DNA of 64,000 nt from Solimonas variicoloris DSM 15731 (GTDB taxonomy: Bacteria > Pseudomonadota > Gammaproteobacteria > Nevskiales > Nevskiaceae). The notes below the pieces were generated by a model. That model saw nothing but the letters and a program-made list of their open reading frames with translations. It was not told the origin of the DNA and did no database searches. The position numbers were made by a program, and so were the translations under genes. Of this stretch, positions 40,045 to 62,856 are shown one piece after another. Positions within the stretch are counted from its first letter, which is position 1; each line of letters starts with the position of its first letter. The DNA lies in NCBI RefSeq assembly GCF_000382285.1, contig NZ_KB907932.1, forward strand, positions 1 to 64,000, given 5' to 3'.

Positions 40045-40061
40045 ACGCAACGCCGATGCCA
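40045..40061 (-). promoter_or_regulatory. Predicted sigma-54 promoter of the dehydrogenase operon
   Basis: Bottom strand TGGCATCGGCGTTGC: -24 GG and -12 GC with exact spacing and the preferred TTGC. The predicted start is near 40036, about 53 bases before the dehydrogenase ATG. Confidence 0.75.
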
Positions 40062-40163
40062 GCCGCGATGGCTTGCGTACCGGCCCGGAATCCGTGCGCT
40101 ATCACCATGATTCGCCGTTGTTTTCCTTGCAGGCCCGGCCATCGCTCGCGAAGCCCGGGCAAG

Positions 40164-40191
40164 GGCGCTGTCACAGGCCCGTGACAGCGCC
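40164..40191. promoter_or_regulatory. Palindromic activator site upstream of the dehydrogenase promoter
   Basis: GGCGCTGTCAC...GTGACAGCGCC is a perfect 11-bp inverted repeat with core TGTCACAGGCCCGTGACA (40169-40186), about 115 bp upstream of the -24/-12 element. That is the usual distance for a sigma-54 activator. It also lies after the porin stop and could double as a transcription end there, although no T-run follows. Confidence 0.6.
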
Positions 40192-40220
40192 GCTACCGTG
40201 CTGACACAACCCGCGCCGGC

Positions 40221-41438
40221 CTAGAACGACAGATAGGCGCCGACGTTGAAGTTGCTGCTCTGGTTCTCGGCGCCGTCGTGTGCTTCGGTCTTCACGTCGC
40301 TGAACTCGCCGAGCAGCGTCAGGTTCGGCGTCAGCGCGTGATAGACGCCGAGCGTGTACTTGCTGTTCTTCTCGACCAGATTCGGTACCGCGGCGGCATC
40401 GGCGGCGTTGGCGTAATCGAGCTTGGAGACGCCGTAGTTCGCGCCGATCTTGGTCTTGGCGATCGTCCAGGTGGCCTGTACGAAGTAGCCGTCGGAATCG
40501 CGCTTGTGGCCGTTGCCGTCGTCGCCGAGCACGAACAGGCCGGTCGTGCCGACGCCGCTGGCGTCGTAATAGCTGGCCAGCAGCTCGACCGGGCCGAACT
40601 TGGCCTTGCCGGTGACGTCGACGCCGAAGCTGTTGTAGTCGCCGGCGTCGTTCGGCAACTGCTGCTTCTGGCTCAGGAAGCTGGTCGACAGGTAGTAGTC
40701 GCCGTAGGTCCACGCCAGCTTGCCGTGAAAGCCGGGCGTGCTCTCGGCGGTCGCCGTGCCCTGCAGCAGCGGCTCGACCGGATCGAAGATGCCCAGCGTC
40801 AGCGTCGCGCCGTAGAAGCTCGGCGTCGTGTAGTTCATCTGCGCCAGCGTGTCGGTGTAGATGTAGCCGAAGCCGATCGAACCGAGCGAAGTATTCGACG
40901 GCGATGCGTAGTTGCCGTTGCCGGCGCCGACGCCGGGCAGCGTCATGTCGTTGATGATCGCGTCGAACTGGAACAGGCCGAAGTTGCGGCCGAACAGGAA
41001 AGTGCCCATGTCGGCATTGCCGAACGTCATGAACACCTGGCGCACGTCCAGGCCGGTGGTGCCGAGAGCGGTGTTGGTGCCGCCCAGATTCGGACTGCCG
41101 CCGTCGTTGGTGCTGACGCCCGGATAAAAGCCGAAGTGCACGCCGATGTCGTAGCCGAGCTGCGTGGTGGTGACGCCGAACTTGATCGACGCCGGCAGCA
41201 GGCCGTTGCTGATCGACGAGGTGTTGTCCTCGCCGCCGGAGTCCGGTGTGCAGGCGCCGCCGACGGTGACGATCGGTGCCGGATGGCTCTCGCACGACGA
41301 ATGGATGTAGTGGACGTTGACGTTGCCGTTGACGGTGAAGGTCCAGTCGCCGGACTTCAGTTCGACGGCCGCCGCCTGTGCCGACGCCAGCGCCGCACCC
41401 GCGCCGAGGACCCACGACAGATGAATGGTCTTGCTCAT
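40221..41438 (-). CDS. Outer-membrane porin of the alcohol-oxidation locus
   Basis: 405 residues with signal peptide (A-A-L-A-S-A-Q-A) and a beta-barrel composition of alternating hydrophobic/aromatic residues (W-T-F-T-V-N-G-N-V-N-V-H-Y), ending in aromatic Phe (A-Y-L-S-F) as barrel proteins do. It resembles general Gram-negative porins found beside alcohol dehydrogenases and probably lets substrate into the periplasm; specificity is unknown. ATG 41438 has an AGGGGG ribosome site. A sigma-54 type promoter lies upstream. Confidence 0.83.
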   Translation of the reverse strand: MSKTIHLSWVLGAGAALASAQAAAVELKSGDWTFTVNGNVNVHYIHSSCESHPAPIVTVGGACTPDSGGEDNTSSISNGLLPASIKFGVTTTQLGYDIGVHFGFYPGVSTNDGGSPNLGGTNTALGTTGLDVRQVFMTFGNADMGTFLFGRNFGLFQFDAIINDMTLPGVGAGNGNYASPSNTSLGSIGFGYIYTDTLAQMNYTTPSFYGATLTLGIFDPVEPLLQGTATAESTPGFHGKLAWTYGDYYLSTSFLSQKQQLPNDAGDYNSFGVDVTGKAKFGPVELLASYYDASGVGTTGLFVLGDDGNGHKRDSDGYFVQATWTIAKTKIGANYGVSKLDYANAADAAAVPNLVEKNSKYTLGVYHALTPNLTLLGEFSDVKTEAHDGAENQSSNFNVGAYLSF

Positions 41439-41516
41439 AAAACCCCCTGCTCTCCTCATGTGATGGATGTCGCCACGCTGCCGGCGGGGAAGCCGACGCG
41501 AGGTCGAAAGCCGCAG

Positions 41517-41533
41517 GCGCAAGCCACATGCCA
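41517..41533 (-). promoter_or_regulatory. Predicted sigma-54 promoter of the porin
   Basis: Bottom strand TGGCATGTGGCTTGC has perfect -24 GG and -12 TTGC elements. The predicted start is near 41508, about 70 bases ahead of the porin ATG. An A/T-rich tract (GGTTTTTTCAAA, 41569-41580) and TGACA/TGTCA half-sites (41614-41618, 41625-41629, 41648-41652) lie upstream. Confidence 0.75.
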
Positions 41534-41613: not shown

Positions 41614-41652
41614 TGACACGCGGCTGTCACGAACCCGCCACGCGGCCTGTCA
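41614..41652. promoter_or_regulatory. Candidate activator sites for the porin promoter
   Basis: TGACA-CGCGGC-TGTCA (41614-41629) plus another TGTCACG from 41648 lie about 90-120 bp upstream of the porin -24/-12. They share half-sites with the dyads near the aldehyde dehydrogenase, dehydrogenase and pqqA promoters, although the first pair is in the opposite order. The rest of 41653-41891 shows nothing recognisable. Confidence 0.45.
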
Positions 41653-41891: not shown

Positions 41892-43298
41892 CTAGCGCGT
41901 CGCGAACGGCAATCCGACGTGCAGGCGGCAGCCGAGGCCACGGCCGCTGTCGACCTGCAGACGTCCGCCGAGGGCGTCGACGCGCTCGGCGAGGCCGACG
42001 ATACCGAGGCCGGCCGGACGCAGATGCACGTCGAAGCCGCGCCCGTTGTCGGCGATCAGCAGTTGCAGCGCGCGCGCGCCGCGCGCATCCGGTTCGCCGA
42101 ACTCGACGCGCACGACGACATGACTGGCCTCGGCGTGGCGCGCGATGTTCGACAGGCCCTCCTGCACGATGCGGAAGACGTGGATCGCCAGCTCGTCGGC
42201 GGCGGCGTCGCAGTCCGGATCGAACGCCGCCTGCAAGGCCCAGTCGGGACGCCGCTGCCGCCACTGAGCGAGCAGTGATTCGAGACTGGCGACGAGGCCG
42301 AGCGCGTCGAGCGTCGGCGGGCGCAGGCGCTGGATCATGCGCCGGCTGATGTCGTGCACTTCGCCGGCCAGCGCGCGGATGCGGCCGAGGCCGGCGCGCA
42401 GCGCAGCCTCGTCGAGTCGGCCCGGTGCGGCGACGAGCGTCGCCGCCTCGACCTCGATCGCCGCGACGTGCTGACCGATCTCGTCGTGCAGCTCGCGCGC
42501 GACATAGCGCCGTTCCTCCTCCTGCACGTCGAGCCGCTGCAGCAGCAGGCGGCGGTTCTGCTGGCGCATGCCGGCGAGCTGGCGCGCGAGCGCTTCGACC
42601 TGCGTCAGCAGGCGGCGCAGCTCGGGCGTGCCGCCGCGCGGCAGGCGCGTTTCGAACTGGCCTTCGCGCATGCGTTCGAGCGCGACGACCGCCTGCGACA
42701 GCGGCCGCAGCGAGCGCGACAGCCAGGCGAATACCAGCAGGTTGATCGCGAAACCCATCGCGACCAGGACGACGAGCACACCGCGCACGTCGCTCCAGGC
42801 TTCGTCGATCTCGTCGTCCGGCATCGGCACGATGCGCACCGCGTAGCGCGCATCGCCGTGCGTCCAGATGCGCTCGACCGGTGCCGGAGCGCCGACGATG
42901 CCGTCGGCGAACCAGTCCGGCGCCCGGCGCGGGGCACGCGGCGCACAATCCGCGGCCCGGCGCGCGTCGGCCTGCAGATCGGCGACGGCAAGGCACAGGT
43001 GGCGGCTGCCGGCATAGGCCTGCGCCCATTCGCGCAGCGCCGCGCTCGCGGCCGGCCCAGGCACGTCGTCGAGCAGGCCCAGCGTCAGATCGAGATGGCC
43101 GGCGGCGGCGCTGACGCCGGCGCGCAGTTCGAGCGCGACCGAGCGGCGTGCCTCGCGGATCGCCAGCACGCTGGCCAGCGACAGGCAGGCGAGCAGGATC
43201 AGGCCGATGCCGGCCGACAGTCGCCAGCGCAGATCGAGCGCCCGCAGGCCACGGCCGTCGCGGCGCGGCGCGGCGACGCTCGGCGCACTGGCGCTCAC
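41892..43298 (-). CDS. Membrane sensor histidine kinase, NarL/HisKA_3 type
   Basis: 468 residues from GTG 43298 (overlaps the regulator stop as GTGA). TM1 (about 29-48), a periplasmic domain, TM2 (172-192), a HAMP-like segment, a coiled coil, then the HisKA_3 box E-R-R-Y-V-A-R-E-L-H-D-E with phospho-acceptor His271. The ATPase has G-L-S-N-I-A-R-H-A (N box) and A-D-N-G-R-G-F-D (G box). It partners the response regulator just upstream. ExaDE/AgmR-like pairs control PQQ ethanol oxidation in pseudomonads, which suggests a similar task here. Confidence 0.9.
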   Translation of the reverse strand: MSASAPSVAAPRRDGRGLRALDLRWRLSAGIGLILLACLSLASVLAIREARRSVALELRAGVSAAAGHLDLTLGLLDDVPGPAASAALREWAQAYAGSRHLCLAVADLQADARRAADCAPRAPRRAPDWFADGIVGAPAPVERIWTHGDARYAVRIVPMPDDEIDEAWSDVRGVLVVLVAMGFAINLLVFAWLSRSLRPLSQAVVALERMREGQFETRLPRGGTPELRRLLTQVEALARQLAGMRQQNRRLLLQRLDVQEEERRYVARELHDEIGQHVAAIEVEAATLVAAPGRLDEAALRAGLGRIRALAGEVHDISRRMIQRLRPPTLDALGLVASLESLLAQWRQRRPDWALQAAFDPDCDAAADELAIHVFRIVQEGLSNIARHAEASHVVVRVEFGEPDARGARALQLLIADNGRGFDVHLRPAGLGIVGLAERVDALGGRLQVDSGRGLGCRLHVGLPFATR

Positions 43299-43924
43299 GG
43301 CAGCGCCGGCAGCAGGCCGGCGGCGATCGCGATGCGCGCCAGCTCGGCACGGTTGCCGGCGCCGAGCTTGTGGCGGATCGCGGTGTTGTAGTTGGCGACC
43401 GTCTTGTCGCTGAGGCTCATCGCCGAGGCGATCTGCGCGACGGCGCGACCTTCGGCGAGCTGGCGGAAGATCTCAAGCTCGCGCAGCGACAGGCGCGCCA
43501 GCGTCGGCGCCAGCCGCTGCGGCACGGCCTCGAAGCGCGGATCGAGAAAACGCCGGCCGGCGGCGACCGTCTCGATCGCGCCGAGCAGGATCTCCGGAGC
43601 GGAGCGCTTGCACAGATAGCCGAGCGCGCCGGCCTCGAACGCTCGGTCGACGATGACGCGCTCCTCGTGCATGCTGAACGCCAGCGCCCGCAGCTGCGGC
43701 TGTCGCTGGCGCATGCGGCGCAACACTTCGAGCCCGCCGATACCGGGCAGCGACAGATCCATCACCACCACGTCGACGCCGCCTTCGAGCAGACGCCGAT
43801 AAGCCTGCGCGCCGTTCGCGGCCTCGGCCGCGACGCGAATGCGCGCCTGCATTTCGATCAGATGCCGGTAGCCGGCGCGGACCACGGCGTGATCGTCGAC
43901 GAGCAGGACCCGCACATGTTCCAT
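43295..43924 (-). CDS. LuxR/NarL-family response regulator
   Basis: 209 residues: receiver domain with acidic pair D10-D11, phospho-acceptor Asp56 (V-V-M-D-L-S-L-P-G) and Lys near 109 (Y-L-C-K-R), then a LuxR HTH (L-S-L-R-E-L-E-I-F-R-Q-L-A-E-G and K-T-V-A-N-Y). It is cotranscribed with the histidine kinase (4-base overlap) and likely regulates the alcohol-oxidation genes around it. GGAGAA upstream of ATG 43924 supports the start. Confidence 0.93.
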   Translation of the reverse strand: MEHVRVLLVDDHAVVRAGYRHLIEMQARIRVAAEAANGAQAYRRLLEGGVDVVVMDLSLPGIGGLEVLRRMRQRQPQLRALAFSMHEERVIVDRAFEAGALGYLCKRSAPEILLGAIETVAAGRRFLDPRFEAVPQRLAPTLARLSLRELEIFRQLAEGRAVAQIASAMSLSDKTVANYNTAIRHKLGAGNRAELARIAIAAGLLPALP

Positions 43925-43978
43925 GTCGTTCTCCTCCGGCCGCCTCGGGGCGGCTCGACGGGTGCGAACAGCGCGGAA

Positions 43979-44095: not shown

Positions 44096-44101
44096 AAGGC
44101 A

Positions 44102-45619
44102 TCAGCCCTGGCCGAGGCCGACGCAGACCGACTTCGTCTCGAGATAGTTGTTGAACACCTCGACGCCCATCTCGCGACCCCAGCCCGACTGCTTGTAACC
44201 GCCGAACGGCAGCGCCGCGTCGAAGATGTTGTAGCAGTTGACCCAGACGGTACCGGCGCGCAGCTTCGTCGCCAGACGATGCGCCCGCGTGATGTTGCTG
44301 GTGTAGATGCCGGCGGCGAGACCGTAGATGGTGTCGTTGGCCTTGCGCACCAGCTCGTCGTCGAGCTCCTTGAAGCGCACCGCGGCGACCACCGGCCCGA
44401 AGATCTCTTCCTGATAGACCTTCATGTTCTCGTGCGCGTCGACGATCACCGTCGGCTCGACGAAGTAGCCCTGTTCGCCAAGGCGCTTGCCGCCGGCGGC
44501 GAACGTCGCACCCTGCTCCTTGCCGGATTCGAGATAGCCGCAGACGCGATCGAGCTGGACCTGCGAAACCAGCGGGCCCATCTGCGTCGACGGATCGAGA
44601 CCCGGACCGACCTTGAGCTTGCGCGCGTACTCGGCGACGCCTTCGACGACCTTGTCGTAGATCTTGTCCTGGATGAACAGGCGCGAACCGGCGCAGCAGC
44701 ACTGGCCGTGATTGAAGAAGATCGCGCTGGCGGCGCCGGGGATCGCCTGTTCGAGATCGGCGTCGTCAAGGATGATGTTCGGCGACTTGCCGCCGAGTTC
44801 GAGCGTCACCTTCTTGAGATCGTTGGCGGCGGCCTTGACGATCAGCTTGCCGACTTCGGTCGAGCCGGTGAACGCGACCTTCGACACGTCGGGATGCGCG
44901 GCCAGCGGCGCGCCGCAGGTCTCGCCGAAGCCGGTGATGACGTTGACGACGCCGTCCGGCACGCCGGCCTTCTGGATCAGCTCGGCGAGCTTGAGGCCCG
45001 ACAGCGGCGTTTCCTCGGCGAGCTTGAGCACCACCGTGCAGCCCGAGGCGAGCACCGGACCGAGCTTCCAGGCCGCCATCAGCAGCGGGAAGTTCCACGG
45101 GATGATCTGCGCAACGACACCGACCGGCTCGCGGCGCGTGAAGGCGTGGTACTCCGAGCCCGGCGTGTACGGCACCGACAGCGTCAGCGAACGGCCGTCG
45201 AGCTTGGTGCACCAGCCGGCCATGTACTGGAACAGCTCGGCGGCGAGCACCACGTCGGCGGCGCGCGCCACCGTGACCGGCTTGCCGTTGTCGAGCGATT
45301 CGATCTGCGCCAGTTCTTCCTGGTGCTCCATGATCAGCTCGCCGATCTTCCAGACGATCTTGCCGCGCTCGGCCGGCGTCATGCGCGACCACGGGCCGGA
45401 TTCGAACGCGCGCTTGGCGGCGGCGACGGCGACATCGACGTCCGGCTTCTCGGCGGCCGGCACATTGGCGATGACCTGCCCGGTCGCCGGGTCCAGCACT
45501 TCGAAGCTCTTGCCGCTCTTGGCGTCGACCCACTTGCCGTCGATCAGCATGCGGCGCTTTTCGCCGATGAAGGCCTTGACGTTGGGGTGCAGCGAAACGA
45601 GGGGTGCGTCTTTGGTCAT
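44102..45619 (-). CDS. NAD+-dependent aldehyde dehydrogenase (ExaC-like)
   Basis: 505 residues, normal ALDH length. Catalytic Cys lies in H-G-Q-C-C-C-A-G-S and the general-base Glu in L-E-L-G-G-K-S-P; the NAD-binding F-T-G-S-T-E-V-G is present. It oxidises the aldehyde made by the periplasmic quinoprotein once it enters the cytoplasm, as ExaC does for acetaldehyde. The ATG at 45619 has a GGAGAT ribosome site. It is divergent from the sigma-54 activator and has its own sigma-54 type promoter. Confidence 0.93.
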   Translation of the reverse strand: MTKDAPLVSLHPNVKAFIGEKRRMLIDGKWVDAKSGKSFEVLDPATGQVIANVPAAEKPDVDVAVAAAKRAFESGPWSRMTPAERGKIVWKIGELIMEHQEELAQIESLDNGKPVTVARAADVVLAAELFQYMAGWCTKLDGRSLTLSVPYTPGSEYHAFTRREPVGVVAQIIPWNFPLLMAAWKLGPVLASGCTVVLKLAEETPLSGLKLAELIQKAGVPDGVVNVITGFGETCGAPLAAHPDVSKVAFTGSTEVGKLIVKAAANDLKKVTLELGGKSPNIILDDADLEQAIPGAASAIFFNHGQCCCAGSRLFIQDKIYDKVVEGVAEYARKLKVGPGLDPSTQMGPLVSQVQLDRVCGYLESGKEQGATFAAGGKRLGEQGYFVEPTVIVDAHENMKVYQEEIFGPVVAAVRFKELDDELVRKANDTIYGLAAGIYTSNITRAHRLATKLRAGTVWVNCYNIFDAALPFGGYKQSGWGREMGVEVFNNYLETKSVCVGLGQG

Positions 45620-45705: not shown

Positions 45706-45722
45706 GGGCAAGGACCCTGCCA
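45706..45722 (-). promoter_or_regulatory. Predicted sigma-54 promoter of the aldehyde dehydrogenase
   Basis: Bottom strand TGGCAGGGTCCTTGC has the -24 GG and -12 GC at exact spacing. The predicted start is near 45697, giving a leader of about 78 bases. An A/T-rich tract (45759-45774, GTTTTTCAAAAAAGA) and a palindromic site (45830-45845) lie upstream in the same order as at the porin. Confidence 0.75.
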
Positions 45723-45829: not shown

Positions 45830-45845
45830 TGTCACGGCCATGACA
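45830..45845. promoter_or_regulatory. Dyad activator site in the aldehyde dehydrogenase/activator intergenic region
   Basis: TGTCACGGCCATGACA is a near-perfect dyad about 120 bp upstream of the aldehyde dehydrogenase -24/-12 element. A further half-site TGTCACG lies at 45795-45801. The 398-bp divergent region 45620-46017 also carries the activator's own promoter, not identified. Confidence 0.6.
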
Positions 45846-46017
45846 CAGTCGGGCGGAACAGCGTCGGCCCGCGCCCGGAATGCTGCATTGACGAACTTTT
45901 GCGCAGCGGAGTACGGTCCTTGCAATAGAGCCGGGGCAAGACCTTCAAGGCCTTCGCCAGCACACCGCGAAAAGACGGACCGGCAACCACAACGGCGCCT
46001 GAGCTTTGAGGAGAGAC

Positions 46018-48049
<2,032 letters not shown>

Positions 48050-48063
<14 letters not shown>

Positions 48064-48097
48064 GACAAGAGCGCGACAACTGTCTCGATTCGAGACA
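48050..48097. promoter_or_regulatory. Two activator dyads upstream of pqqA
   Basis: TGTCACAAGCCTGAGACA (48050-48067) overlaps the end of the activator gene, and the perfect palindrome TGTCTCGATTCGAGACA lies at 48081-48097. They lie about 115-160 bp upstream of the pqqA sigma-54 promoter, the expected place for enhancer sites. Confidence 0.6.
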
Positions 48098-48102: not shown

Positions 48103-48128
48103 AAGCGCCGCCTCTGCGGCGCCTTTTT
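48103..48128 (+). terminator. Rho-independent terminator of the sigma-54 activator gene
   Basis: GCGCCGC (48105-48111), loop CTCT, GCGGCGC (48116-48122), then C and five T (48124-48128), 42 bases after the stop codon. Confidence 0.85.
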
Positions 48129-48210: not shown

Positions 48211-48227
48211 TGGCACGCTCGCTGCTT
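48211..48227 (+). promoter_or_regulatory. Predicted sigma-54 promoter of pqqA
   Basis: TGGCACGCTCGCTGC matches the -24/-12 consensus (GG at 48212-48213, GC at 48224-48225). The predicted start is near 48237, about 68 bases before pqqA. Dyads at 48050-48097 serve as candidate activator sites. Confidence 0.78.
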
Positions 48228-48304: not shown

Positions 48305-48382
48305 ATGTGGACCAAACCGAGCTTCCGTGACCTGCGCTTCGGCATGGAAATCACGATGTACATCCTGAACCGCCAGGCCTGA
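48305..48382 (+). CDS. pqqA: PQQ precursor peptide PqqA
   Basis: 25 residues: MWTKPSFRDL RFGMEITMYI then L-N-R-Q-A. The Glu15 and Tyr19 in E-I-T-M-Y are the residues joined and excised to build PQQ. The AGGAG site upstream and position before pqqB confirm it. Confidence 0.95.
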   Translation: MWTKPSFRDLRFGMEITMYILNRQA

Positions 48383-48401
48383 ACGCCCGGCGGTGCGGTG
48401 T

Positions 48402-48524
48402 CCGCGGCGCGGCCCTCCCGGGGCCGCGCCGCGGAAGGCGGTAGCGCAAACTCTCCCCCTCCCAACGCGCGACCGCCACGGCGACTGCCCCCCTGCCCGG
48501 GCAATCCTTGGCCGGGGGTTTTTT
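48402..48524 (+). terminator. Tandem hairpins between pqqA and pqqB (attenuator region)
   Basis: A perfect 14-bp stem CCGCGGCGCGGCCC (48402-48415) / GGGCCGCGCCGCGG (48421-48434) is followed by a second C-rich/G-rich hairpin (48488-48518) with a T6 run (48519-48524). Together they should stop most transcripts after pqqA, giving excess peptide over the enzymes. Confidence 0.7.
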
Positions 48525-48555
48525 CTGCCCACTGCCCGCGTTTTCCATTCCAGCC

Positions 48556-49485
48556 ATGTCCGGCGAAACTCTCACCGTCCGCGTCCTCGGTTCCGCCGCG
48601 GGCGGCGGCTTCCCGCAGTGGAACTGCAACTGCGCGATGTGCGACGGCCTGCGTCGCGGTCGCGTCCGCGCCAAACCCCGTACGCAGTCGTCGATCGCCG
48701 TCAGCGCCGACCGCACGCACTGGCTGCTGATCAACGCTTCCCCCGATCTGCGCGCGCAGATCCTGGCGACGCCCGAACTGCAGCCGGCCCGCTCACGACG
48801 CGACAGCGGCATCGCCGCGGTGTTGCTGACCGACGCACAGATCGACCACGTCGCCGGACTGGCGATGCTGCGCGAATCGACGCAGCCGCTGCCGGTCTAC
48901 TGCACGGACCGCGTGCGCGATGATCTGCGCTCCGGCCTGCCGATGCTGCCGCTGCTCGAACCCTACTGCGGCAGCCGCTGGCATGAGATCCGGCCGGACG
49001 GCGAAGCCTTCGCGGTCGACGGCGTGCCCGGCATCCGCCTGCGCGCGCTGCCGCTGCACAGCAAACCGCCGCCGTACTCGCCGCACCGCGCGCGACCGGC
49101 GCCCGGCGACAACCTCGGCCTGCTGATCGAAAACCCGGCGAGCGGACAGCGCCTGTTCTACGCACCGGGCCTCGGCGTGTTCGACAAGGACATCGATGCG
49201 GCGATGCGCGCCGCCGACCTGATGCTGGTCGACGGCACCTGCTGGACCGACGACGAGATGAGCCGCAGCGGCGTCGGCCACAAGCGCGCCACCGAAATGG
49301 GCCATCTGCCGCAGAGCGGTGCCGGCGGCATGCTCGAATGGCTGCAGCGGCACCCGGACAAGCGCCGCGTGCTGATTCACATCAACAACACCAACCCGAT
49401 CCTCGACGAGGACAGCGCCGAGCGCGCGCAGCTGCGGCTGCTCGGCATCGAAGTCGCCGAGGACGGCATGGAGCTTTCGTTCTGA
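48556..49485 (+). CDS. pqqB: PQQ biosynthesis protein PqqB (MBL-fold hydroxylase)
   Basis: 309 residues, near the family length. [15 protein letters not shown] is the hallmark of PqqB, and the MBL-like [10 protein letters not shown] follows. It is an iron-dependent hydroxylase that adds oxygens to the Glu-Tyr intermediate. Start ATG 48556 fits the family N-terminus; pqqC begins 2 bp after its stop. Confidence 0.95.
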
Positions 49486-49487
49486 AC

Positions 49488-50252: not shown

Positions 50253-50257
50253 ATCCG

Positions 50258-50566
50258 ATGCCGACATCCGCAACCCAAGGTGCCCCGGTGAGCCCGATCC
50301 CGATCGACGCCCATGTCAGTCTCGCGCCCGCGCTGCGCCTGCAATGGGAGGCCGCGCAGGAATGTCACGTGCTGCTCTATCCCGAAGGCATGGTGCAACT
50401 CAATCCGTCCGCCGCCGCGATCCTCGAGCTCTGCGACGGCGTGCACACCTTCCGCGACATCGTCGGCACGCTGACCGCGCGCTTCCCGGAGGCCAGCAAC
50501 CTCTCCGACGACGTCGCCGAGTTCATCGACGTCGCCAGCCACCGGGGCTGGGTCCGTGTCCGCTGA
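50258..50566 (+). CDS. pqqD: PqqA-binding chaperone PqqD
   Basis: About 102 residues from ATG 50258; GTG 50249 or GTG 50288 are other possible starts. The winged-helix RRE fold is indicated by Y-P-E-G-M-V-Q-L-N-P-S-A-A-A-I-L-E-L-C-D. It holds PqqA for the radical-SAM enzyme PqqE. It overlaps pqqE by 11 bp. Confidence 0.93.
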   Translation: MPTSATQGAPVSPIPIDAHVSLAPALRLQWEAAQECHVLLYPEGMVQLNPSAAAILELCDGVHTFRDIVGTLTARFPEASNLSDDVAEFIDVASHRGWVRVR

Positions 50567-56293: not shown

Positions 56294-57103
56294 TCACCCT
56301 GCCTGTCGCCTCAGCCGCACCAGTCCGCGCTGCGGGTCAAAGCCAAGGGCCGCAGCGATGAAGAACAGCAGCGTGGCGGCCGCCACGACGGTGAGCGCTT
56401 CACCATTAAGGCGGCCGTAGAGCGCATAGCGGATCAGTTCCACCGCATGCGTGAACGGGTTGAAGCGCGCCAGCCACCAGACCCACGTCGCACCGGACTC
56501 CTGCAGCTTCCACAGGGGGTACAAGGCGCTCGACAGGAAGAACATCGGGAAGATCACGAAGTTCATCGCGCCGGCGAAGTTCTCGAGCTGACGGATCGTG
56601 GCGGCGAGCAGCAGACCGAGCGCCCCGAGCATCAGCCCGCAAAGCAACAGCGCCGGCAGCGCGGAAAGCCAGCCGCCCCACGGCAGACCGACGCCGAACC
56701 AGGCGCAGACGGCAAGAAAGGCATAGGCCTGCAACATCGACAGCACGGTACCGGCTAACAGCTTGCAGGCGAGCAGATAGACGCGCGGCAGCGGTGCCGT
56801 CAGCAGCAGGCGCATCATGCCCATCTCGCGGTCGTAGACCATCGCCAACGAAGACTGCATGCCGTTGAACAGCAGCACCATGCCGAGCAGGCCGGGCGCG
56901 ACATACTCCTGATAGGTCACGAAACGGTCGTAAGGCTCGACGACCGACATGCCGAACACGTTCTGGAAACCGGCCGCGAACACCGCGAGCCACAGCGTCG
57001 GCCGCACCAGTGCCGACAGCAGGCGGGAACGCTGCTGCACGAAGCGGCGCACCTCGCGCTGACAGATCGCAAACAGTGCCTGCGCGGCGTGACCCGCCCT
57101 CAT
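56294..57103 (-). CDS. ABC-2 type permease of the PQQ-associated transporter (PedC-like)
   Basis: 269 residues with six membrane helices and the ABC-2 pattern F-V-T-Y-Q-E-Y-V-A-P-G-L-L-G-M-V-L-L-F-N-G-M-Q-S and R-F-N-P-F-T-H-A-V-E-L-I-R. It matches the permease that accompanies PQQ alcohol dehydrogenase systems. With the ATPase at 59276 it should form an exporter. The ATG overlaps the previous stop (ATGA). It is the last gene of the operon. Confidence 0.83.
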   Translation of the reverse strand: MRAGHAAQALFAICQREVRRFVQQRSRLLSALVRPTLWLAVFAAGFQNVFGMSVVEPYDRFVTYQEYVAPGLLGMVLLFNGMQSSLAMVYDREMGMMRLLLTAPLPRVYLLACKLLAGTVLSMLQAYAFLAVCAWFGVGLPWGGWLSALPALLLCGLMLGALGLLLAATIRQLENFAGAMNFVIFPMFFLSSALYPLWKLQESGATWVWWLARFNPFTHAVELIRYALYGRLNGEALTVVAAATLLFFIAAALGFDPQRGLVRLRRQAG

Positions 57104-58281
57104 TTCCCATCTCCGCGTCGGCAGGCGCTCTCGCGGGCGTCGATGCCGAGCGTGTCGAGTGCATTGCGCGGATCGAGAAAACCGTCGAACGGCGCGACGG
57201 CGAGCACAGCATTGTCGCCAGTCACCAAGACCGGCTGACGCAGCTGCCCGTCCCAGGGCCGAAATCCCATGCGAAAGCCCTTGAATCCATCGAGCGTGAT
57301 CGACTCGCCGCGCAGATAGGAGCGCATCTTCGCGAAGTCCGCACCGCCGGTACGCTGCGCTGCCTCGACGACAGCCTTGACTGCCATCCAGGCCGACCAG
57401 TCGTACTGCGTGGGCCGTCGTCCCGCGGCCTTGCGCAGACGCGCGTTGAGCTGCGGCGCGCCGTGGCGCTCCCAGGCCCAATGCCAGCCGTCGGCCACGA
57501 TGCCGGCGCTGCCGACGACGACGCGCGGACGCTGCGTCATGCCGGGGACGTCGCGCGCGAATTCGCCGTCGCTGTCGGCGACGTAGACCGCGTCATAGTC
57601 AGGCCCCGCGGTCAGCAGGGCCACATCGTTGCGCTCGCGTTGGCGCGGATCGCGGCCGGGGACGAAGTCACGCGTGGCGACGGTCTCGATGCCGTAACGC
57701 CGGGCACTGCGCGCAAAGCTGTCCGCCTGTGCGCGATCGGCGGCCTGCGGGCCGCGCAGCACCAGCACGCGCCGCCACTTGCGGCTTGCCAGGTACTGAC
57801 CGAGCGCATCGTCGAGCATCGCTTGGCTCGGCACCACGTGCAGCAGGTTCGGCTGACATTGCGGGCCGCGCAGCGCATCGTCGAGCGCGGAGACATTGAA
57901 CAACAGCAGGTCCAGATCGCGCACACGCTGCGCGAGCACTGCCAGCGGCGCGGCACGCGCATCGACGATGAAGAAGCGCACGCCTTGCGCATAGCGTCGG
58001 CGCAGAGCGGCCTCCAGCGCGGCGGCACCCGACGCCGAGTCCCTGTCGAGCGTGAGCGAGAGGCCGAGCGCGGCAGCGGCAAAGCGCGATTCCTGGACCG
58101 CTACTTCGGCGCCTGCCGCAGGCCGCCCCCACGGCTGCAGGCGCAGCGCCTCGTCGAGCCGGTGCGCCTCGTAGCGCGCATCGCCGCTGTCTTCGAGCAT
58201 GTCGATCGCCAGCGTCGCGGCTTGCGCCGGATACGCGCAGGCCAAGAGCACCAGCGCCAGCAGACGGCGTGCGCCTGTCAT
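57100..58281 (-). CDS. PQQ-associated ABC substrate-binding protein
   Basis: 393 residues with signal peptide (L-L-A-C-A-Y-P-A-Q-A) and a two-lobed periplasmic binding fold of the branched-chain amino acid type (A-V-Y-V-A-D-S-D-G-E, W-S-A-W-M-A-V-K-A-V). It corresponds to the binding protein that occurs with PQQ-dependent alcohol systems. Start ATG 58281 overlaps the propeller gene by 4 bp. Confidence 0.83.
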   Translation of the reverse strand: MTGARRLLALVLLACAYPAQAATLAIDMLEDSGDARYEAHRLDEALRLQPWGRPAAGAEVAVQESRFAAAALGLSLTLDRDSASGAAALEAALRRRYAQGVRFFIVDARAAPLAVLAQRVRDLDLLLFNVSALDDALRGPQCQPNLLHVVPSQAMLDDALGQYLASRKWRRVLVLRGPQAADRAQADSFARSARRYGIETVATRDFVPGRDPRQRERNDVALLTAGPDYDAVYVADSDGEFARDVPGMTQRPRVVVGSAGIVADGWHWAWERHGAPQLNARLRKAAGRRPTQYDWSAWMAVKAVVEAAQRTGGADFAKMRSYLRGESITLDGFKGFRMGFRPWDGQLRQPVLVTGDNAVLAVAPFDGFLDPRNALDTLGIDARESACRRGDGK

Positions 58282-59279
58282 CGGTCGTCGACCACGATGC
58301 TGTGCGGCGTGCGTCCGGCCGGCACCGCACGCTCGACGCGAAACGATTGAAGATCGACGACGGCGACATCGTCCGAAAGACCGTTGGCGACGAGCAGGCG
58401 GCGGCCGTCCGCCGTCAGTGCCGCCCCCCAGGCGCGACTGCCGGTCAGGGCATAGCCCAGCACGCGACGCGCGGCGACGTCGACCTTGGCGACGTGGTTC
58501 GCGCGCCCGAGCGTGACGTAGGCGGTGCGTCCATCCGGCGTCATGACGATGCCGACCGGCGTGACGTCCTCGACGCGGAATCCCTGCGGCGCGAAGCGCA
58601 GCTCGCCGCTCACCACGCCGCGCAGCGGATCGACGATGCTGACGTTGGCGCCGAGTTCGTTGGTCACCCACAGCTCGCGGCCGTCCGGCGTCAGCGCCAT
58701 GCGCCGCGGCCGGTTGCCGACCAGCACGCTGCGACGCAGAACGTGCGTCTTCGCGTCGATGACGTGCACCATGTTGGCGACTTCGGAGGCGACGTAAACC
58801 GTCGCGCCGTCGGGGCTGACGAGCACGCCTTCCGGCTCGTCGCCGACCGCAACCGAAGCAATGATGCGGCCGCTGGCGAGATCGAGCGCGCTCGCCGTCG
58901 CCGTCTCCTCATTGGACAGCCACAGCGCGCCGCCATCGGGCGTCAGCGCGAACATCTCCGGATCGTCGACGCCGCGCAAACGCGCGACGATCGTGCGGCG
59001 ATCGGGATCGATGACGTCGATCGAATTCCCGTCGCCGCAGGCGACGTAAAGGCGGCGGCGATCCGGCGACAGCGCCAGCGCGCGCGGCCGCTTGGCGACC
59101 GCGAGACGGAAGACCGGCTTCCAGCTCGCCAGGTCGATGAAGGTGACGATGCCGTCTTTCTCGCTCGACACGTAGGCCAGATTGCGGCCGCCGGCCAGCG
59201 CCGCGCACGGCACCAGCAGCGCGGCGATCAGCACCGCAGCAGCGGACAGCGCAATAACGGAATGCCGCGACGATCTCAT
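58278..59279 (-). CDS. PQQ-associated YVTN-type beta-propeller protein
   Basis: 333 residues with signal peptide (V-P-C-A-A-L-A-G-G) and seven-fold repeats of S-P-D-G/T-P-D-G-x-x-x-Y-V and I-D-V-I-D. This is the beta-propeller found in PQQ-linked ABC loci. It may act as scaffold or binding partner for the periplasmic proteins. Its ATG is coupled to the ATPase gene stop (ATGA). Confidence 0.85.
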   Translation of the reverse strand: MRSSRHSVIALSAAAVLIAALLVPCAALAGGRNLAYVSSEKDGIVTFIDLASWKPVFRLAVAKRPRALALSPDRRRLYVACGDGNSIDVIDPDRRTIVARLRGVDDPEMFALTPDGGALWLSNEETATASALDLASGRIIASVAVGDEPEGVLVSPDGATVYVASEVANMVHVIDAKTHVLRRSVLVGNRPRRMALTPDGRELWVTNELGANVSIVDPLRGVVSGELRFAPQGFRVEDVTPVGIVMTPDGRTAYVTLGRANHVAKVDVAARRVLGYALTGSRAWGAALTADGRRLLVANGLSDDVAVVDLQSFRVERAVPAGRTPHSIVVDDR

Positions 59280-60046
59280 GCGTCTGCTTCCTCCGCCCGG
59301 CCCGGCGCCGGCTCGCGCGTGAGCGCGACGAAAGCCGATTGCAGGTCGGGTGCCTGTTGGGCGGCGACGATCGCCGCCGGCGAACCCTCGGCGCGGCAGC
59401 GGCCGCGATGCAGCACCAGTACGCGATCGGCGGCCTCGGCCTCGTCGACCAGATGCGTCGCCCACAACACCGCGAGACCGTCGTCGGCACAGCGGCGGCG
59501 CACGCTGTCGAGCAACTGCCGGCGCGACAAAGGGTCGAGGCCGACGGTCGGCTCATCCATCAGCAGCAGACGGGGCTGCGTCAGCAGCGCACGCGCCAGC
59601 TCGACCTTGCGCCGGTTGCCGCCGCTGAGCAGGCGGCACGGCCGCGCTGCCTGCTCGGAGAGCCCCAGCTCGGCGAGCAGCACCGGCGCCCGCTGCAGGC
59701 CTGCGTGGCCGAGTCCGTGCAGCCGTGCGTGAAAGCGCAAATTGGCGAGCGCGTCGGTGTCGAGATCGAGCGTCGGCTGCTGGAATACCACGCCGATGCG
59801 CGCCAGCGCCGCCGACGGCCGCTGTGCCAGCGAAACCCCGTCGACCTCGATGACGCCGGCGTCGGCGACGAACAGCGCGGTCAGCAGCTGGAACAGTGTC
59901 GACTTGCCGGCACCGTTCGGGCCGAGCAGCGCCACGAACTCGCCCGGCGCGATCGACAGATCGAGGCCGTCGAGCGCGCGCAGCGCACCGTAGCGCTTCG
60001 ACAGCCGGACGACTCGCAGGCTGGGCGGCACGGCGTCGCCGTTCAT
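59276..60046 (-). CDS. PQQ-associated ABC transporter ATP-binding protein
   Basis: 256 residues. Walker A G-P-N-G-A-G-K-S-T, Q-loop F-Q-Q-P, signature L-L-S-G-G-N, Walker B L-L-L-M-D-E-P and H-loop W-A-T-H-L. The T-L-F-Q-L-L-T-A-L-F block is typical of the ATPase of PQQ alcohol loci. It drives the ABC-2 permease at 56294. Starts overlap on both sides. Confidence 0.87.
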   Translation of the reverse strand: MNGDAVPPSLRVVRLSKRYGALRALDGLDLSIAPGEFVALLGPNGAGKSTLFQLLTALFVADAGVIEVDGVSLAQRPSAALARIGVVFQQPTLDLDTDALANLRFHARLHGLGHAGLQRAPVLLAELGLSEQAARPCRLLSGGNRRKVELARALLTQPRLLLMDEPTVGLDPLSRRQLLDSVRRRCADDGLAVLWATHLVDEAEAADRVLVLHRGRCRAEGSPAAIVAAQQAPDLQSAFVALTREPAPGRAEEADA

Positions 60047-60762
60047 GGCACGTCCGCCTGCACCGTATCGCCGATGCCGTCGAGCAGCGGCCGCCACTGT
60101 CGCGCCAGCGCTTCGAGTGCGACATCGTCGTCGCGCCGCGGCCGTGGCAGCGGCACGCGGCGCTCGGCGATGACACGCCCCGGCGCCGCCGAGAAAAACA
60201 GCAGGCGATCGGCGAGCAGCAATGCCTCGCGCAGCTCATGCGTCACACACAGTACCGTCGGCCGCTCGCGCGCCCACAGCGCCAGCAGCAGCGCGTACAG
60301 CTGCGCGCGCGTCGGCACGTCGACCGAGACAAACGCTTCGTCGAGCAGCAGCAGGCGCGGCCTGATCGCAAACGCGCGCGCCAATGCGACCCGGCGCTGC
60401 ATGCCGCCGGACAGACGGTGGGCGTACACCCCGGCGTGCTCGCGCAAGCCGACCGCCGCGAGCAGTGCGTCGATGCCCGCCTCGTCAGCGCCGACCAGCG
60501 CGAGGTTGTCGCGCACGCTGAGCCAGGGCAGCAGACGCGGCTCCTGAAACACCATGCCGATGCGGCCGCCGCCGCGCACGATGCAGCCCCGATAGTCGCG
60601 GTCGAGCCCGGCGATCAGCTGCAGCAACGTGGTCTTGCCGGCCCCTGACGGACCGAGCAGCGCGACGAACTCACCGTCGGCGACATCGAGACGCAGCGGC
60701 GCCAGCGCATCGCGCCCGCCATAGCGCTTGGTCTCGATGCTCAGGCGCAGCGCGGCGCTCAT
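60043..60762 (-). CDS. ABC ATPase of a NitT/SsuB/TauB-type importer
   Basis: 239 residues from ATG 60762. Walker A G-P-S-G-A-G-K-T-T, signature L-S-G-G-M-Q-R-R, Walker B L-L-L-L-D-E with an unusual following A-F-V-S-V-D in place of P-x-x-x-L-D; H-loop C-V-T-H-E-L-R-E-A. The V-T-H-E-L-R-E-A-L-L-L-A-D-R end matches the nitrate/sulfonate/taurine group. It pairs with the permease and binding protein next to it. GTG 60771 is a less likely start. Confidence 0.87.
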   Translation of the reverse strand: MSAALRLSIETKRYGGRDALAPLRLDVADGEFVALLGPSGAGKTTLLQLIAGLDRDYRGCIVRGGGRIGMVFQEPRLLPWLSVRDNLALVGADEAGIDALLAAVGLREHAGVYAHRLSGGMQRRVALARAFAIRPRLLLLDEAFVSVDVPTRAQLYALLLALWARERPTVLCVTHELREALLLADRLLFFSAAPGRVIAERRVPLPRPRRDDDVALEALARQWRPLLDGIGDTVQADVP

Positions 60763-61523
60763 GCGCGCCACCGCCGGCAGCGCTGTTCGAGCGGCCGCAG
60801 CAGCAGCGCCTCGACCAGCGCGATCACCGCAACGAATGCTCCCGCGTACGCCAGCACTCCGGTGACATCGAAGTCGTGAAAACTGCGCGCCAGCGCGAAA
60901 CCGACACCGTTCGGCCGTCCGAGCAGTTCGACGACGAGCACGATCTTCCAGACCAGCGCCAGGCCGTTACGCGCGGCGCCGAGCAGGTAGGGCGCGAGCT
61001 GTGGCAACCAGATGTGGCGCAGCACGCGGCCGCGCGACAGGCCGTACACCGTGCCGACCTGCAGCAGCCGCTCGTCGAGGGCGCGCGCGCCTTCGCGCAG
61101 CGCGACGGCGACCATCGGAATCTTGTTGAGCGCCACCGCCAGCACCGCGGCGAATTCACCGAGACCGAACCAGACGTAGCACAGCATCATCGTCACCAGC
61201 GCCGGCAGGTTCAGCGCGACCATCAACGGCGCATCGAGCGCAGCGTCGAGCCGTGCGCGACGCCCCATCAGCACGCCGAGCACGCTGCCGCACGCCATCG
61301 CCAGCAGGAACGCGACGGCGACACGCGCCAGCGTCGGCAGCAATTGCCGCCACAGCTCGCCGGACGAAGCCAGTTGACCGAGCCGGGCGGCCACGGCCAG
61401 CGGCCCCGGCAGCAGCGGATCGGCGAGCACCAGCGCCGCCAGCTGCCAGAGCAGCAGCGCCGCAAGCGCACCGGCGATACGTCCGTTCAATAGCGACGGC
61501 ATCGGTACGACCAGCGTGCTCAC
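60759..61523 (-). CDS. ABC permease of a NitT/SsuC-type importer
   Basis: 254 residues from GTG 61523, which overlaps the preceding stop (GTGA). There are about six helices and the EAA loop E-G-A-R-A-L-D-E-R-L-L-Q-V-G-T-V-Y-G-L-S-R-G that docks the ATPase. P-M-V-A-V-A-L fits the SsuC/TauC family. Substrate is unknown; its operon position suggests a compound linked to alcohol oxidation. Confidence 0.86.
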   Translation of the reverse strand: MSTLVVPMPSLLNGRIAGALAALLLWQLAALVLADPLLPGPLAVAARLGQLASSGELWRQLLPTLARVAVAFLLAMACGSVLGVLMGRRARLDAALDAPLMVALNLPALVTMMLCYVWFGLGEFAAVLAVALNKIPMVAVALREGARALDERLLQVGTVYGLSRGRVLRHIWLPQLAPYLLGAARNGLALVWKIVLVVELLGRPNGVGFALARSFHDFDVTGVLAYAGAFVAVIALVEALLLRPLEQRCRRWRA

Positions 61524-62473
61524 CGGCGTGCTTCCGCCGGCCAGAACGTACCGGGCTGCAGCGCCTCGCCCCCGAGCAGCGCGCAAAGACGCGCGGCGTC
61601 GCGTGCGTCGATGTCCTCAGCGACATTGCGCAGGCCGGCGCGATAGGCGTCGCGCAGCGCCAGGAACTCCGCCTCGTCGCCGGCCTGCATCAGGGGCCGC
61701 AGCGCCTGCCACGCCGCATCGTCGTCGCGCAGGCGCTGCTGGGCCGCCGCCGACGCGCGCAGAAAGCCGCGCAGCGCGTCGCCGTGTGCCTGCGCCCAGC
61801 CTCCGGCGAATACCCAGCCGAGCAGCGGCGGCGGCGGCGAGAAGCCGAGTCCGCGCAGCATCGCGTTGGCATCGAGCAGCGGGCGCTGGCCGGCGGCGAC
61901 CAGACGCGCATTGAAGTGCCAGAAGCTCAGCACGGCATCGAGCCGGCCGCGCAGCAGCAACTGATTCAGCGTCGGCGGCGGAGCGAAGTCGACGCGAATC
62001 TCGCGCGCCGCGTCGAAGCCCTCGTGCCGTTGCGCGTAGACCTGGAGCAGACGCCAGGTTTTGTCGTCAGCGCCGCCGGCGATGCCGAGATGGCGGCCAC
62101 GAAGCTCCGCAAGATCGCGTATGCCGCTGCGCGCGGCGGCCACCAGACCGCCAAGCGCCTGCGGATGCGCCGCGAGCCGGTAGTCGCGTCCCTGCGCGCG
62201 CTGCCGCGACACCCAGAACCAGTCGGCGAGCACGATGTCGGCCGCCCCGCCCTGCAGCGCCACGGTCGCAGCATCCGCCGACGCCACCGGCGCCAGTTGC
62301 AGCGTGAAACCGTTGGCGGTGTCGAGTCCGGCCCGCTGCAGCCCGTCGAGCTCCCAGGCGACGGTGCCGAAGCCGAGAGCGGCGACACGCACGGGCTCGG
62401 CGGCCGACGCCGCGCCGCTCAGCGCCATCGCCAGACCGGCAGCGCGGCCCAGCGCGCACAGCGCGCGCCGCAT
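61520..62473 (-). CDS. ABC substrate-binding protein, NMT1/SsuA-like
   Basis: 317 residues with signal peptide (A-L-S-G-A-A-S-A-A-E). The fold is that of SsuA/TauA/NMT1 proteins: F-T-L-Q-L-A-P-V, A-D-I-V-L-A-D-W-F-W-V, G-I-A-G-G. It lies 4 bp after the EthD-like gene. Aromatic residues (W-F-W) line the presumed ligand pocket. Ligand unknown. Confidence 0.83.
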   Translation of the reverse strand: MRRALCALGRAAGLAMALSGAASAAEPVRVAALGFGTVAWELDGLQRAGLDTANGFTLQLAPVASADAATVALQGGAADIVLADWFWVSRQRAQGRDYRLAAHPQALGGLVAAARSGIRDLAELRGRHLGIAGGADDKTWRLLQVYAQRHEGFDAAREIRVDFAPPPTLNQLLLRGRLDAVLSFWHFNARLVAAGQRPLLDANAMLRGLGFSPPPPLLGWVFAGGWAQAHGDALRGFLRASAAAQQRLRDDDAAWQALRPLMQAGDEAEFLALRDAYRAGLRNVAEDIDARDAARLCALLGGEALQPGTFWPAEARR

Positions 62474-62477
62474 TGCC

Positions 62478-62795
62478 TCAGGCCTCGACGACGATGGCGG
62501 AAATCTGCAGTTGCGGCTGCAAATCGGTGTAGTTCGGCACATCGGCAAGCACGGCGGCACCAGCCGCCGCGAACGCCGCCTCGAAGTGCTCCACCGACGC
62601 GAAATACAAATGCGCGGCGGCGACGAACGGGGCCTCGCCGCCACCGCCGCCAGCCAGCCCGCGATCGGCCTCGACGCGCAGCAGTCCATGCGGCGTCAGC
62701 CGTTCGCGCACCAGCGCGATGTGACGCTGCGCGTAATAGACGTGGTCGAAACGGGCGCCGGCCTGGTTCGCATACAGCGCGGATACGCGGATCAT
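62478..62795 (-). CDS. EthD-like protein
   Basis: 105 residues: M-I-R-V-S-A-L-Y-A-N-Q-A-G-A-R-F-D-H-V-Y-Y-A-Q-R-H matches the EthD ferredoxin-like fold, whose members accompany ether or aromatic degradation and may handle toxic products. It is the first gene of the operon with the two ABC systems and lies 46 bp behind a sigma-54 promoter. Confidence 0.8.
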   Translation of the reverse strand: MIRVSALYANQAGARFDHVYYAQRHIALVRERLTPHGLLRVEADRGLAGGGGGEAPFVAAAHLYFASVEHFEAAFAAAGAAVLADVPNYTDLQPQLQISAIVVEA

Positions 62796-62841
62796 CTCTC
62801 TCCTCCGGTTCTTGTCGTGTGCCGCTTGTGAAAGCGGACGC

Positions 62842-62856
62842 GCAAGACCGGTGCCA
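62842..62856 (-). promoter_or_regulatory. Predicted sigma-54 promoter of the EthD/ABC operon
   Basis: Bottom strand TGGCACCGGTCTTGC has perfect -24/-12 elements; the predicted start is near 62831, about 36 bases before the EthD ATG. Confidence 0.75.

What the first reader, a model, noticed from the sequence alone, without database searches (positions are those of the whole stretch)
40045..62856. A shared sigma-54 regulon covers the whole alcohol-oxidation programme
Five transcription units carry the same TGGCA-N7-TGC (-24/-12) motif a short distance before the first gene: dehydrogenase operon (40045-40061), porin (41517-41533), aldehyde dehydrogenase (45706-45722), pqqA (48211-48227) and EthD/ABC operon (62842-62856). 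Eight fixed bases in fixed spacing are expected about once in 65 kb per strand at even base composition, so five placed in the right gaps and orientation is notable. An AcoR-type activator is encoded in the middle (46018-48063). The joint wiring would couple substrate entry, oxidation, PQQ synthesis and accessory transport to one signal.
Basis: partly seen in the sequence, partly recalled or inferred. Interest (0 to 1): 0.82.

Follow-up and report, generated by a model that had tools for sequence, protein, structure and literature searches.

The report
Sigma-54 regulon for PQQ alcohol oxidation
In this bacterium the enzymes, cofactor-making genes, porin and transporters for oxidising alcohols appear to be switched on together by one sensor protein through a special class of promoters, a wiring that differs from the well-studied Pseudomonas version of the same gene set.

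Summary
That loose motif alone is weak: 144 copies genome-wide, fewer than its reversed control (218). Three further tests support the reading. (1) The strict form (TGGCA-N6-TTGC) has 33 copies in 4.12 Mb; four are here. All four carry two or three TGTCA/TGACA half-sites in the 200 bases upstream; 0 of the other 29 carry two. pqqA carries the dyad in degenerate form. (2) Homologous promoters in related genera and families keep the -24/-12 element: porin 9/9, pqqA 10/11, ADH 10/13, ALDH 13/14 (relaxed motif; 4/14 exact), against 2-6% of random stretches; the transporter operon in two relatives. (3) Among ADH homologues of 58% identity or more, 12 of 14 genomes with the activator have the site and 0 of 4 without it do. 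The activator has GAF, AAA+ with GAFTGA, and Fis-type HTH. The dehydrogenase carries the Asp linked to lanthanide binding, and the fifth operon encodes PedA1A2BC-like parts. Best reading: one AcoR-type activator and sigma-54 drive alcohol entry, oxidation, PQQ synthesis and probably lanthanide transport. No expression data. New variant of a known kind.

The parts
40047..40061 (-). sigma-54 -24/-12 element of the ADH operon (TGGCATCGGCGTTGC)
   Evidence: site upstream of ADH in 10 of 13 homologues
40169..40186 (.). dyad TGTCAC-N6-GTGACA upstream of ADH, predicted activator site; a third half-site at about 40206
38196..39983 (-). PQQ alcohol dehydrogenase, WDFD motif (lanthanide-type Asp), closest solved structures 6zcv/6zcw
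36042..38108 (-). PedF cytochrome c550 (37671-38108), family-3 binding protein (36806-37681), SoxYZ-like carrier (36042-36794): rest of the ADH operon
   Evidence: gaps of 87, -11 and 11 bases
41519..41533 (-). sigma-54 element of the porin gene (TGGCATGTGGCTTGC)
   Evidence: 9 of 9 homologues
41614..41629 (.). half-sites TGACACGCGGCTGTCA (as read on +) upstream of the porin, plus one more TGACA
40221..41438 (-). outer-membrane porin (Porin_4)
45708..45722 (-). sigma-54 element of the aldehyde dehydrogenase gene (TGGCAGGGTCCTTGC)
   Evidence: relaxed TGGC-N8-TGC in 13 of 14 homologues, exact TGGCA-N7-TGC in 4 of 14
45830..45847 (.). half-site dyad upstream of ALDH, in the gap shared with the activator gene
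44102..45619 (-). NAD-type aldehyde dehydrogenase
41892..43927 (-). LuxR-type response regulator and HisKA_3 sensor kinase behind ALDH (gap 174 bases), no TGGCA-N7-TGC site of their own in this window
46018..48063 (+). AcoR-type enhancer-binding protein: GAF, sigma-54 AAA+ with GAFTGA, Fis-type HTH; proposed activator
48050..48097 (.). degenerate half-sites upstream of pqqA (TGTCACAAGCCTGAGACA 48050-48067 and TGTCTCGATTCGAGACA 48081-48097)
48105..48122 (+). terminator-like hairpin with T run between the activator gene and the pqqA promoter
   Evidence: one of 9 such hairpins in 39900-54500; shuffles give 7.0
48211..48225 (+). sigma-54 element of pqqA (TGGCACGCTCGCTGC)
   Evidence: 10 of 11 homologues
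48305..51701 (+). pqqA (48305), pqqB (48556-49485), pqqC, pqqD, pqqE (50556-51701)
51794..54177 (+). TonB-dependent receptor behind pqqE, possible last gene of the pqq unit
62842..62856 (-). sigma-54 element of the EthD/ABC operon (TGGCACCGGTCTTGC)
   Evidence: kept in the near-identical G007; in G039 (family f4) an element with a TGTCAC-N6-GTGACA dyad lies before the binding-protein gene of this operon
62910..62922 (.). half-sites TGACACTGTGTCA (as read on -) upstream of EthD
56294..62795 (-). EthD protein, NMT1-type binding protein, permease, two ATPases, PQQ-associated beta-propeller, PQQ_ABC_bind protein and PedC-type permease (PedA1A2BC-like)

Best explanation
The five operons form one sigma-54 regulon. 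Shown by sequence: each has a -24/-12 element with two or more TGTCA/TGACA-type half-sites upstream (degenerate at pqqA), the combination is confined to this cluster among the genome's strict sigma-54 sites, and it is largely conserved with the cluster in relatives. Inferred: the GAF-AAA+-HTH_8 protein at 46018-48063 senses an alcohol or its aldehyde, binds the half-sites as an oligomer, and uses ATP to open sigma-54 polymerase at the porin, ADH/cytochrome, ALDH, pqqABCDE and EthD/ABC operons. Uptake, periplasmic oxidation, the PQQ cofactor and (by homology to PedH and PedA1A2BC) lanthanide handling would then be raised together. The kinase/regulator pair behind ALDH would be a downstream, possibly metal-sensing, layer.
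For: All five elements are real and correctly placed. Of 33 strict sites genome-wide the 4 in this cluster carry 2-3 half-site cores in 200 bases; of the other 29 none carries 2 (Fisher p 2.4e-5, a pattern noticed before it was tested; one of the 29 had only 177 bases upstream). Of 10 genomic places with the dyad TGTSNC-N6-GNSACA three are here, and none of the other 7 has a TGGC-N8-TGC site 30-300 bases downstream on either strand. Excluding the five promoters, 0 of 38,452 random 200-base draws from the window have three cores. Promoter conservation: porin 9/9, pqqA 10/11, ADH 10/13, ALDH 13/14 (relaxed), against 1.8% (exact) or 5.5% (relaxed) of random stretches and 2/11 for pqqE. The transporter operon keeps its element in G007 (near-identical) and, with a perfect dyad, in G039 of another family. 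GTGACA occurs upstream of 28 of 44 such promoters, 1.6 expected. ADH homologues of 58% identity or more: site in 12/14 genomes with the activator, 0/4 without. The activator has GAFTGA; two rpoN genes. In 3 of 20 relatives the activator gene itself has a TGGCAY-N6-TGC element upstream, 2 of the 3 with half-sites.
Against: No expression, footprint or mutant data. Neither the loose -24/-12 motif (144 against 218 for the reversed control) nor the dyad pattern alone (10 places against 20 for its reversed control) is enriched genome-wide; only their combination stands out. Half-site geometry varies (inverted at ADH, ALDH and pqqA; everted at porin and EthD), and EthD's sites are only 58-66 bases from the element. 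In six f6 loci the pqqA and pqqB elements lack GTGACA/TGTCAC half-sites, so another activator may act there. G010 keeps the activator and the ADH dyad but lacks the -24 element. Relatives are not independent. The link from this activator to these half-sites rests on proximity and co-occurrence, not binding.
Confidence: 0.83

Rival explanations
1. The neighbouring LuxR-type response regulator and kinase (PedS2/PedR2-like) are the main controllers, acting through ordinary promoters, and the sigma-54 motifs are minor or decorative.
For: In Pseudomonas the same genes are controlled by LuxR-type regulators (PMC12997753, passages). The pair lies inside the cluster and homologues lie beside it in many relatives; it is also present near the ADH in one activator-less relative, G026.
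Against: The -24/-12 elements are kept in relatives whose surrounding upstream sequence differs. In G039 the regulator gene itself has a sigma-54 element 98 bases upstream, which fits a target rather than the top of the chain. A crude scan found no sigma-70-like promoter in 39900-54500, but shuffles give only 0.9, so this says little.
Confidence: 0.1
2. The promoters are sigma-54 dependent but driven by a different or by several enhancer-binding proteins.
For: The genome has 15 matches to the activator, including a 41% identical paralogue at C1:432138. f6 pqq promoters have sigma-54 elements without these half-sites.
Against: The paralogue has its own ADH/ALDH neighbours and a sigma-54-like site without TGACA/TGTCA cores. 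The ADH element and dyad are absent in the three g6 relatives that lack this activator but keep an 81-82% identical ADH, although they have other proteins with the sigma-54 AAA+ domain.
Confidence: 0.12
3. The five sites are chance matches in a GC-rich genome.
For: The loose motif is not enriched genome-wide (144 against 218 for the reversed control), and 2 of 100 shuffles of the window reach 8 matches.
Against: Conservation at homologous promoters and the exclusive second motif.
Confidence: 0.01

Closest known systems
ped cluster of Pseudomonas putida (AgmR/PedR1, PedS2-PedR2)
   Same: Much the same parts list: PQQ alcohol dehydrogenase, PedF cytochrome, aldehyde dehydrogenase, alcohol-linked porin, PedA1A2BC-like transporter, co-regulated pqq genes (PMC12997753, passages read).
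   Different: There the activators described in the passages are LuxR-type; the word sigma occurs once in that paper, for CbrB, and RpoN not at all. Here sigma-54 elements and an AcoR-type activator sit at the operons, and pqq lies in the cluster with a TonB receptor behind it; P. putida is said to lack a LutH homologue.
AcoR-ExaC and RpoN1 ethanol catabolism in Ralstonia solanacearum
   Same: An AcoR homologue predicted to drive an acetaldehyde dehydrogenase with sigma-54; an rpoN1 mutant cannot grow on ethanol (PMC4676750, passages).
   Different: The passages seen name one target, ExaC, and give no PQQ genes, porin or transporter.
BmoR of Thauera butanivorans
   Same: Alcohol-responsive sigma-54 activator with an upstream inverted repeat (PMC8899819, passages).
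   Different: Its promoter drives butane monooxygenase; no PQQ regulon was described in the passages seen. There, removing the repeat left activation at wild-type level in E. coli, a caution for reading half-sites as essential.
Sigma-54 regulons with TGT-N10-12-ACA activator sites in Clostridiales
   Same: Same style of site: inverted TGT/ACA repeats for 15 activator groups, mostly 100-250 bases before TTGGCATNNNNNTTGCT (PMC6615313, passages).
   Different: Most of those activators control one operon (170 of 263); here five. Their AcoR group has a distinct motif, not the TGT/ACA one. No PQQ system among the targets seen.

Membership tests
sigma-54-dependent promoter | GG and GC 10 bases apart within TGGCAY-N5-TTGC | tested here: met
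   Five of five have GG-N10-GC and TGGCA-N7-TGC; four of five have TTGC; four of five have C or T after TGGCA, ALDH has G
sigma-54-dependent promoter | rpoN in the genome | tested here: met
   Two PF04552 matches over cut-off
sigma-54-dependent promoter | transcription start about 12 bases after the GC element | not testable with these tools
   No RNA data
sigma-54 enhancer-binding protein | AAA+ domain with GAFTGA | tested here: met
   Pfam Sigma54_activat 1.9e-66; GAFTGA read in the translation and found in 19 of 20 relatives' proteins (not in G023)
AcoR-type activator | GAF, AAA+ and Fis-type HTH in that order | tested here: met
AcoR (acetoin regulator) proper | score over a curated equivalog cut-off | tested here: inconclusive
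   No NCBIfam model over cut-off among the 25 of 26 families shown, and none of the 25 is an AcoR model; 'AcoR-type' means architecture only
ped-type alcohol oxidation cluster | PedF, PedC and PQQ-associated ABC parts | tested here: met
   PedF 183.9/122, PedC 382.9/241.35, PQQ_ABC_repeats 295/287.3 over cut-off; PQQ_ABC_bind 407.5/413.6 and PQQ_ABC_ATP 301.7/302.25 just under
lanthanide-type PQQ alcohol dehydrogenase | Asp in place of the Ser seen in Ca-type enzymes at the metal site | tested here: met
   WDFD, as in 6zcv/6zcw; 1flg has WDFS. Role of that Asp: PMC5487730 (one passage). That this position is the one meant there, and that 6zcv/6zcw are PedH, is recalled
lanthanide-type PQQ alcohol dehydrogenase | activity with lanthanides | not testable with these tools
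   Needs enzyme assay

The most novel reading that the evidence does not exclude
A single alcohol-sensing enhancer-binding protein with sigma-54 replaces the LuxR-type control known from Pseudomonas and commands the full kit for lanthanide-dependent alcohol oxidation: outer-membrane entry, dehydrogenase and cytochrome, aldehyde dehydrogenase, PQQ synthesis and lanthanide transport. The wiring has stayed with the activator across genera and families of one gammaproteobacterial order, while one family has moved its pqq promoters to a different upstream signal.
Probability: 0.5. Interest if true: 0.62.

Novelty: new variant of a known kind. Interest (0 to 1): 0.5.

Why it matters
It gives an exact, testable regulon with promoters and activator sites for PQQ-dependent, probably lanthanide-dependent, alcohol oxidation outside Pseudomonas and methylotrophs. 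It suggests that a similar set of enzymes can be placed under a quite different class of transcription control, and it offers relatives with and without the activator as natural controls.

Tried and rejected
Judging the claim by the loose motif alone: rejected, because genome-wide it is no commoner than its reversed control. An off-by-one strict pattern was set aside and redone. A first pass over ADH loci misread strands and was replaced. The EthD and pqqC queries were in a wrong frame; EthD was redone in the right frame: of 32 stretches (31 from relatives) only G007's holds an EthD match, so EthD conservation rests on one near-identical relative plus G039's binding-protein gene. pqqC served only as a label. 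Chance: set aside. The 50179 and 34957 sites are not counted as promoters. Literature: searches returned nothing; others (20 of 55 listed; 4 of 4; 2 of 2; 15 of 21; 12 of 138) listed no paper whose title or abstract start describes a sigma-54 regulon for PQQ alcohol oxidation. I looked into passages of seven papers; the other listed papers were not opened. The 80 named loci were used only as handles, not analysed.

Counting choices: 'with activator' means the 21 genomes whose best match reached 517 bits or more; genomes with best matches of 345-452 bits (such as G005, 42%) were counted as without. ADH loci were examined for the 30 fetched of 46 genomes with an ADH match: sites in 15 of 20 with and 0 of 10 without the activator. 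Six of the 10 have distant homologues (40-43%), so the comparison restricted to 58% or more (12/14 against 0/4) is the fairer one. G009's ADH (WDFS type) lies just behind ALDH and may share its promoter. Window and G007, and G053 and G058, are near-duplicates in the counts.
Full report
What was checked. The five TGGCA-N7-TGC sites are in the sequence in the stated gaps and orientations (gaps read). From the first base of the element to the start codon it is 61 (EthD), 78 (ADH), 94 (pqqA), 95 (porin) and 103 (ALDH) bases. The window has 8 matches in all; 100 dinucleotide shuffles give a mean of 3.07 and 2 of 100 reach 8. Across the 4.12 Mb genome the loose motif has 144 matches and its reversed control 218, so it proves little alone. 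The fuller TGGCA-N6-TTGC has 33 matches against 18 for the control, and four of the five sites have it.

Gene content. The operons encode a PQQ alcohol dehydrogenase with cytochrome PedF, a family-3 binding protein and a SoxYZ-like carrier; a porin; an aldehyde dehydrogenase followed by a LuxR-type regulator and a HisKA_3 kinase; pqqA-E followed by a TonB receptor; and EthD followed by an NMT1-type transporter and PedC-type ABC parts. The dehydrogenase is closest in the PDB to 6zcv/6zcw (861 and 855 bits) ahead of 1flg (707), and reads WDFD where 1flg reads WDFS. An Asp in place of Ser at the metal site marks lanthanide-type enzymes (PMC5487730, one passage); that this is the same position is my recall. 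PedA1A2BC is described as the lanthanide transporter needed for PedH-dependent growth (PMC12997753, passages). The lanthanide reading of this cluster is inference from homology.

A second shared motif. Upstream of all five elements lie TGTCA/TGACA-type half-sites: TGTCACGGGCCTGTGACA (ADH), TGTGTCATGGCCGTGACA (ALDH), TGACAGCCGCGTGTCA (porin), TGACACTGTGTCA (EthD), and TGTCACAAGCCTGAGACA with TGTCTCGATTCGAGACA (pqqA). Exact cores in the 200 bases upstream: 3 (ADH), 3 (porin), 3 (ALDH), 2 (EthD) and 1 (pqqA, 4 with degenerate ones). I then examined all 33 strict sigma-54 sites of the genome (30): the 4 in this cluster have 2-3 cores, the other 29 have 0 or 1 (one of them with only 177 bases available). 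Some of the others lie before ORFs that by eye look like pilin, flagellar and nitrate-transport genes, so this is not a feature of sigma-54 promoters in general. The dyad pattern TGTSNC-N6-GNSACA has 10 places in the genome against 20 for its reversed control, so it is not enriched by itself; three of the 10 are here, and none of the other 7 has a TGGC-N8-TGC site 30-300 bases downstream on either strand.

Conservation. I fetched 20 loci around the best activator matches in relatives. The cluster is largely syntenic in many of them. Within 210 bases of the homologous start, the relaxed element TGGC-N8-TGC is present for porin 9/9, pqqA 10/11, ADH 10/13 and ALDH 13/14, against 5.5% of random stretches of the same loci and 2/11 for pqqE. 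These counts include the window itself. EthD was found only in the window and G007, both with the element; in G039 the element TGGCACCGAACTTGC with TGTCACACATTCGTGACA upstream lies before the binding-protein gene of the operon. GTGACA occurs upstream of 28 of 44 of these promoters, 1.6 expected. Other genes have a TGGCAY-N6-TGC element in some relatives: the activator itself in 3 of 20 loci, PedF in G009 and G011, the response regulator in G039, the kinase in G009, pqqB in six f6 loci.

Presence and absence. For 30 genomes with a fetched ADH locus (of 46 with a match, 61 searched), the element is upstream in 15 of 20 genomes with the activator and 0 of 10 without. Among homologues of 58% identity or more it is 12 of 14 against 0 of 4 (Fisher p 0.005; lineages are not independent). 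Most telling is genus g6 (G015, G026, G035): the ADH-PedF-binding protein-SoxYZ operon is kept with an 81-82% identical ADH, the activator is missing (best matches cover only the AAA+ region), and the sigma-54 element and the dyad are absent; G026 keeps one GTGACA/TGTCAC hexamer. Exceptions among genomes with the activator: G010 has the dyad but no -24 element; G009's ADH is of the WDFS type and lies behind ALDH; G020, G041 and G057 have no site before their best ADH, a 43-44% homologue.

Mechanism. The activator at 46018-48063 has GAF, sigma-54 AAA+ and Fis-type HTH domains and GAFTGA (19 of 20 relatives). The genome has two rpoN genes. I infer that ligand binding to the GAF domain (an alcohol or its aldehyde) lets the protein activate all five promoters from the upstream half-sites. 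A terminator-like hairpin at 48105-48122 lies between the activator gene and pqqA, though such hairpins are about as common in shuffles (9 against 7.0). Variable half-site geometry, and the short distance at EthD, are unexplained and may reflect binding as higher oligomers.

Relation to the known. The parts list resembles the Pseudomonas ped cluster, whose described activators are LuxR-type (PMC12997753, passages). AcoR plus RpoN1 for ethanol and ExaC is known in Ralstonia (PMC4676750, passages), BmoR for butane oxidation (PMC8784404 and PMC8899819, passages), and TGT-N10-12-ACA activator sites, mostly 100-250 bases before sigma-54 promoters, in Clostridiales, where the AcoR group has a different motif (PMC6615313, passages). 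The kind is therefore known; its extension over the PQQ programme, with pqq and the transporter, was not found in seven library searches, which cover open-licence papers only and whose longer lists were seen in part.

Organism. The 16S gene is 84% identical to Zoogloea and 83% to Paraburkholderia, and the RpoN DNA-binding domain is 86% identical to a Nevskia sp. MAG, next best 62% among the eight other genomes compared. It is probably a member of Nevskiales (Gammaproteobacteria); this is inference.

Noticed in passing
window 21930-21944(-): Another sigma-54-like site (TGGCATCAAACATGC) before an ORF that looks by eye like an ammonium transporter; no TGTCA/TGACA half-sites, so probably an NtrC-type promoter outside this regulon.
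   Followed up: partly
G000:C1:427000-434000 (L220): A paralogous module: second AcoR-type activator (36-41% identical) beside a PQQ dehydrogenase and an aldehyde dehydrogenase (56%), with a sigma-54-like site and no TGACA/TGTCA cores.
   Followed up: partly
L072, L073, L075, L076, L077 (family f6): Upstream of pqqA the GTGACA half-sites are absent and GCCA-N4-TGGC palindromes (e.g. GCCACTATTGGC) appear while the -24/-12 element stays: a possible change of activator at pqqA.
   Followed up: partly
L065 (5880-6821), L066 (9220-10242), L068 (6242-6450), L206 (12263): Sigma-54 elements before an adenylate-kinase-like ORF (by eye), divergent from a TonB-receptor-like ORF with its own element in L066 and L068; in L066 a TGTCCC-N6-GGGACA dyad lies between them, and in L065 and L066 another element precedes a further long ORF.
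   Followed up: no
window 54383-55465(-): Open frame that looks by eye like an IS3-type transposase between the pqq unit and the ABC operon.
   Followed up: no
G000:C7:113413 and C11:84871: Two rpoN genes in one genome; which one serves this regulon is unknown.
   Followed up: no
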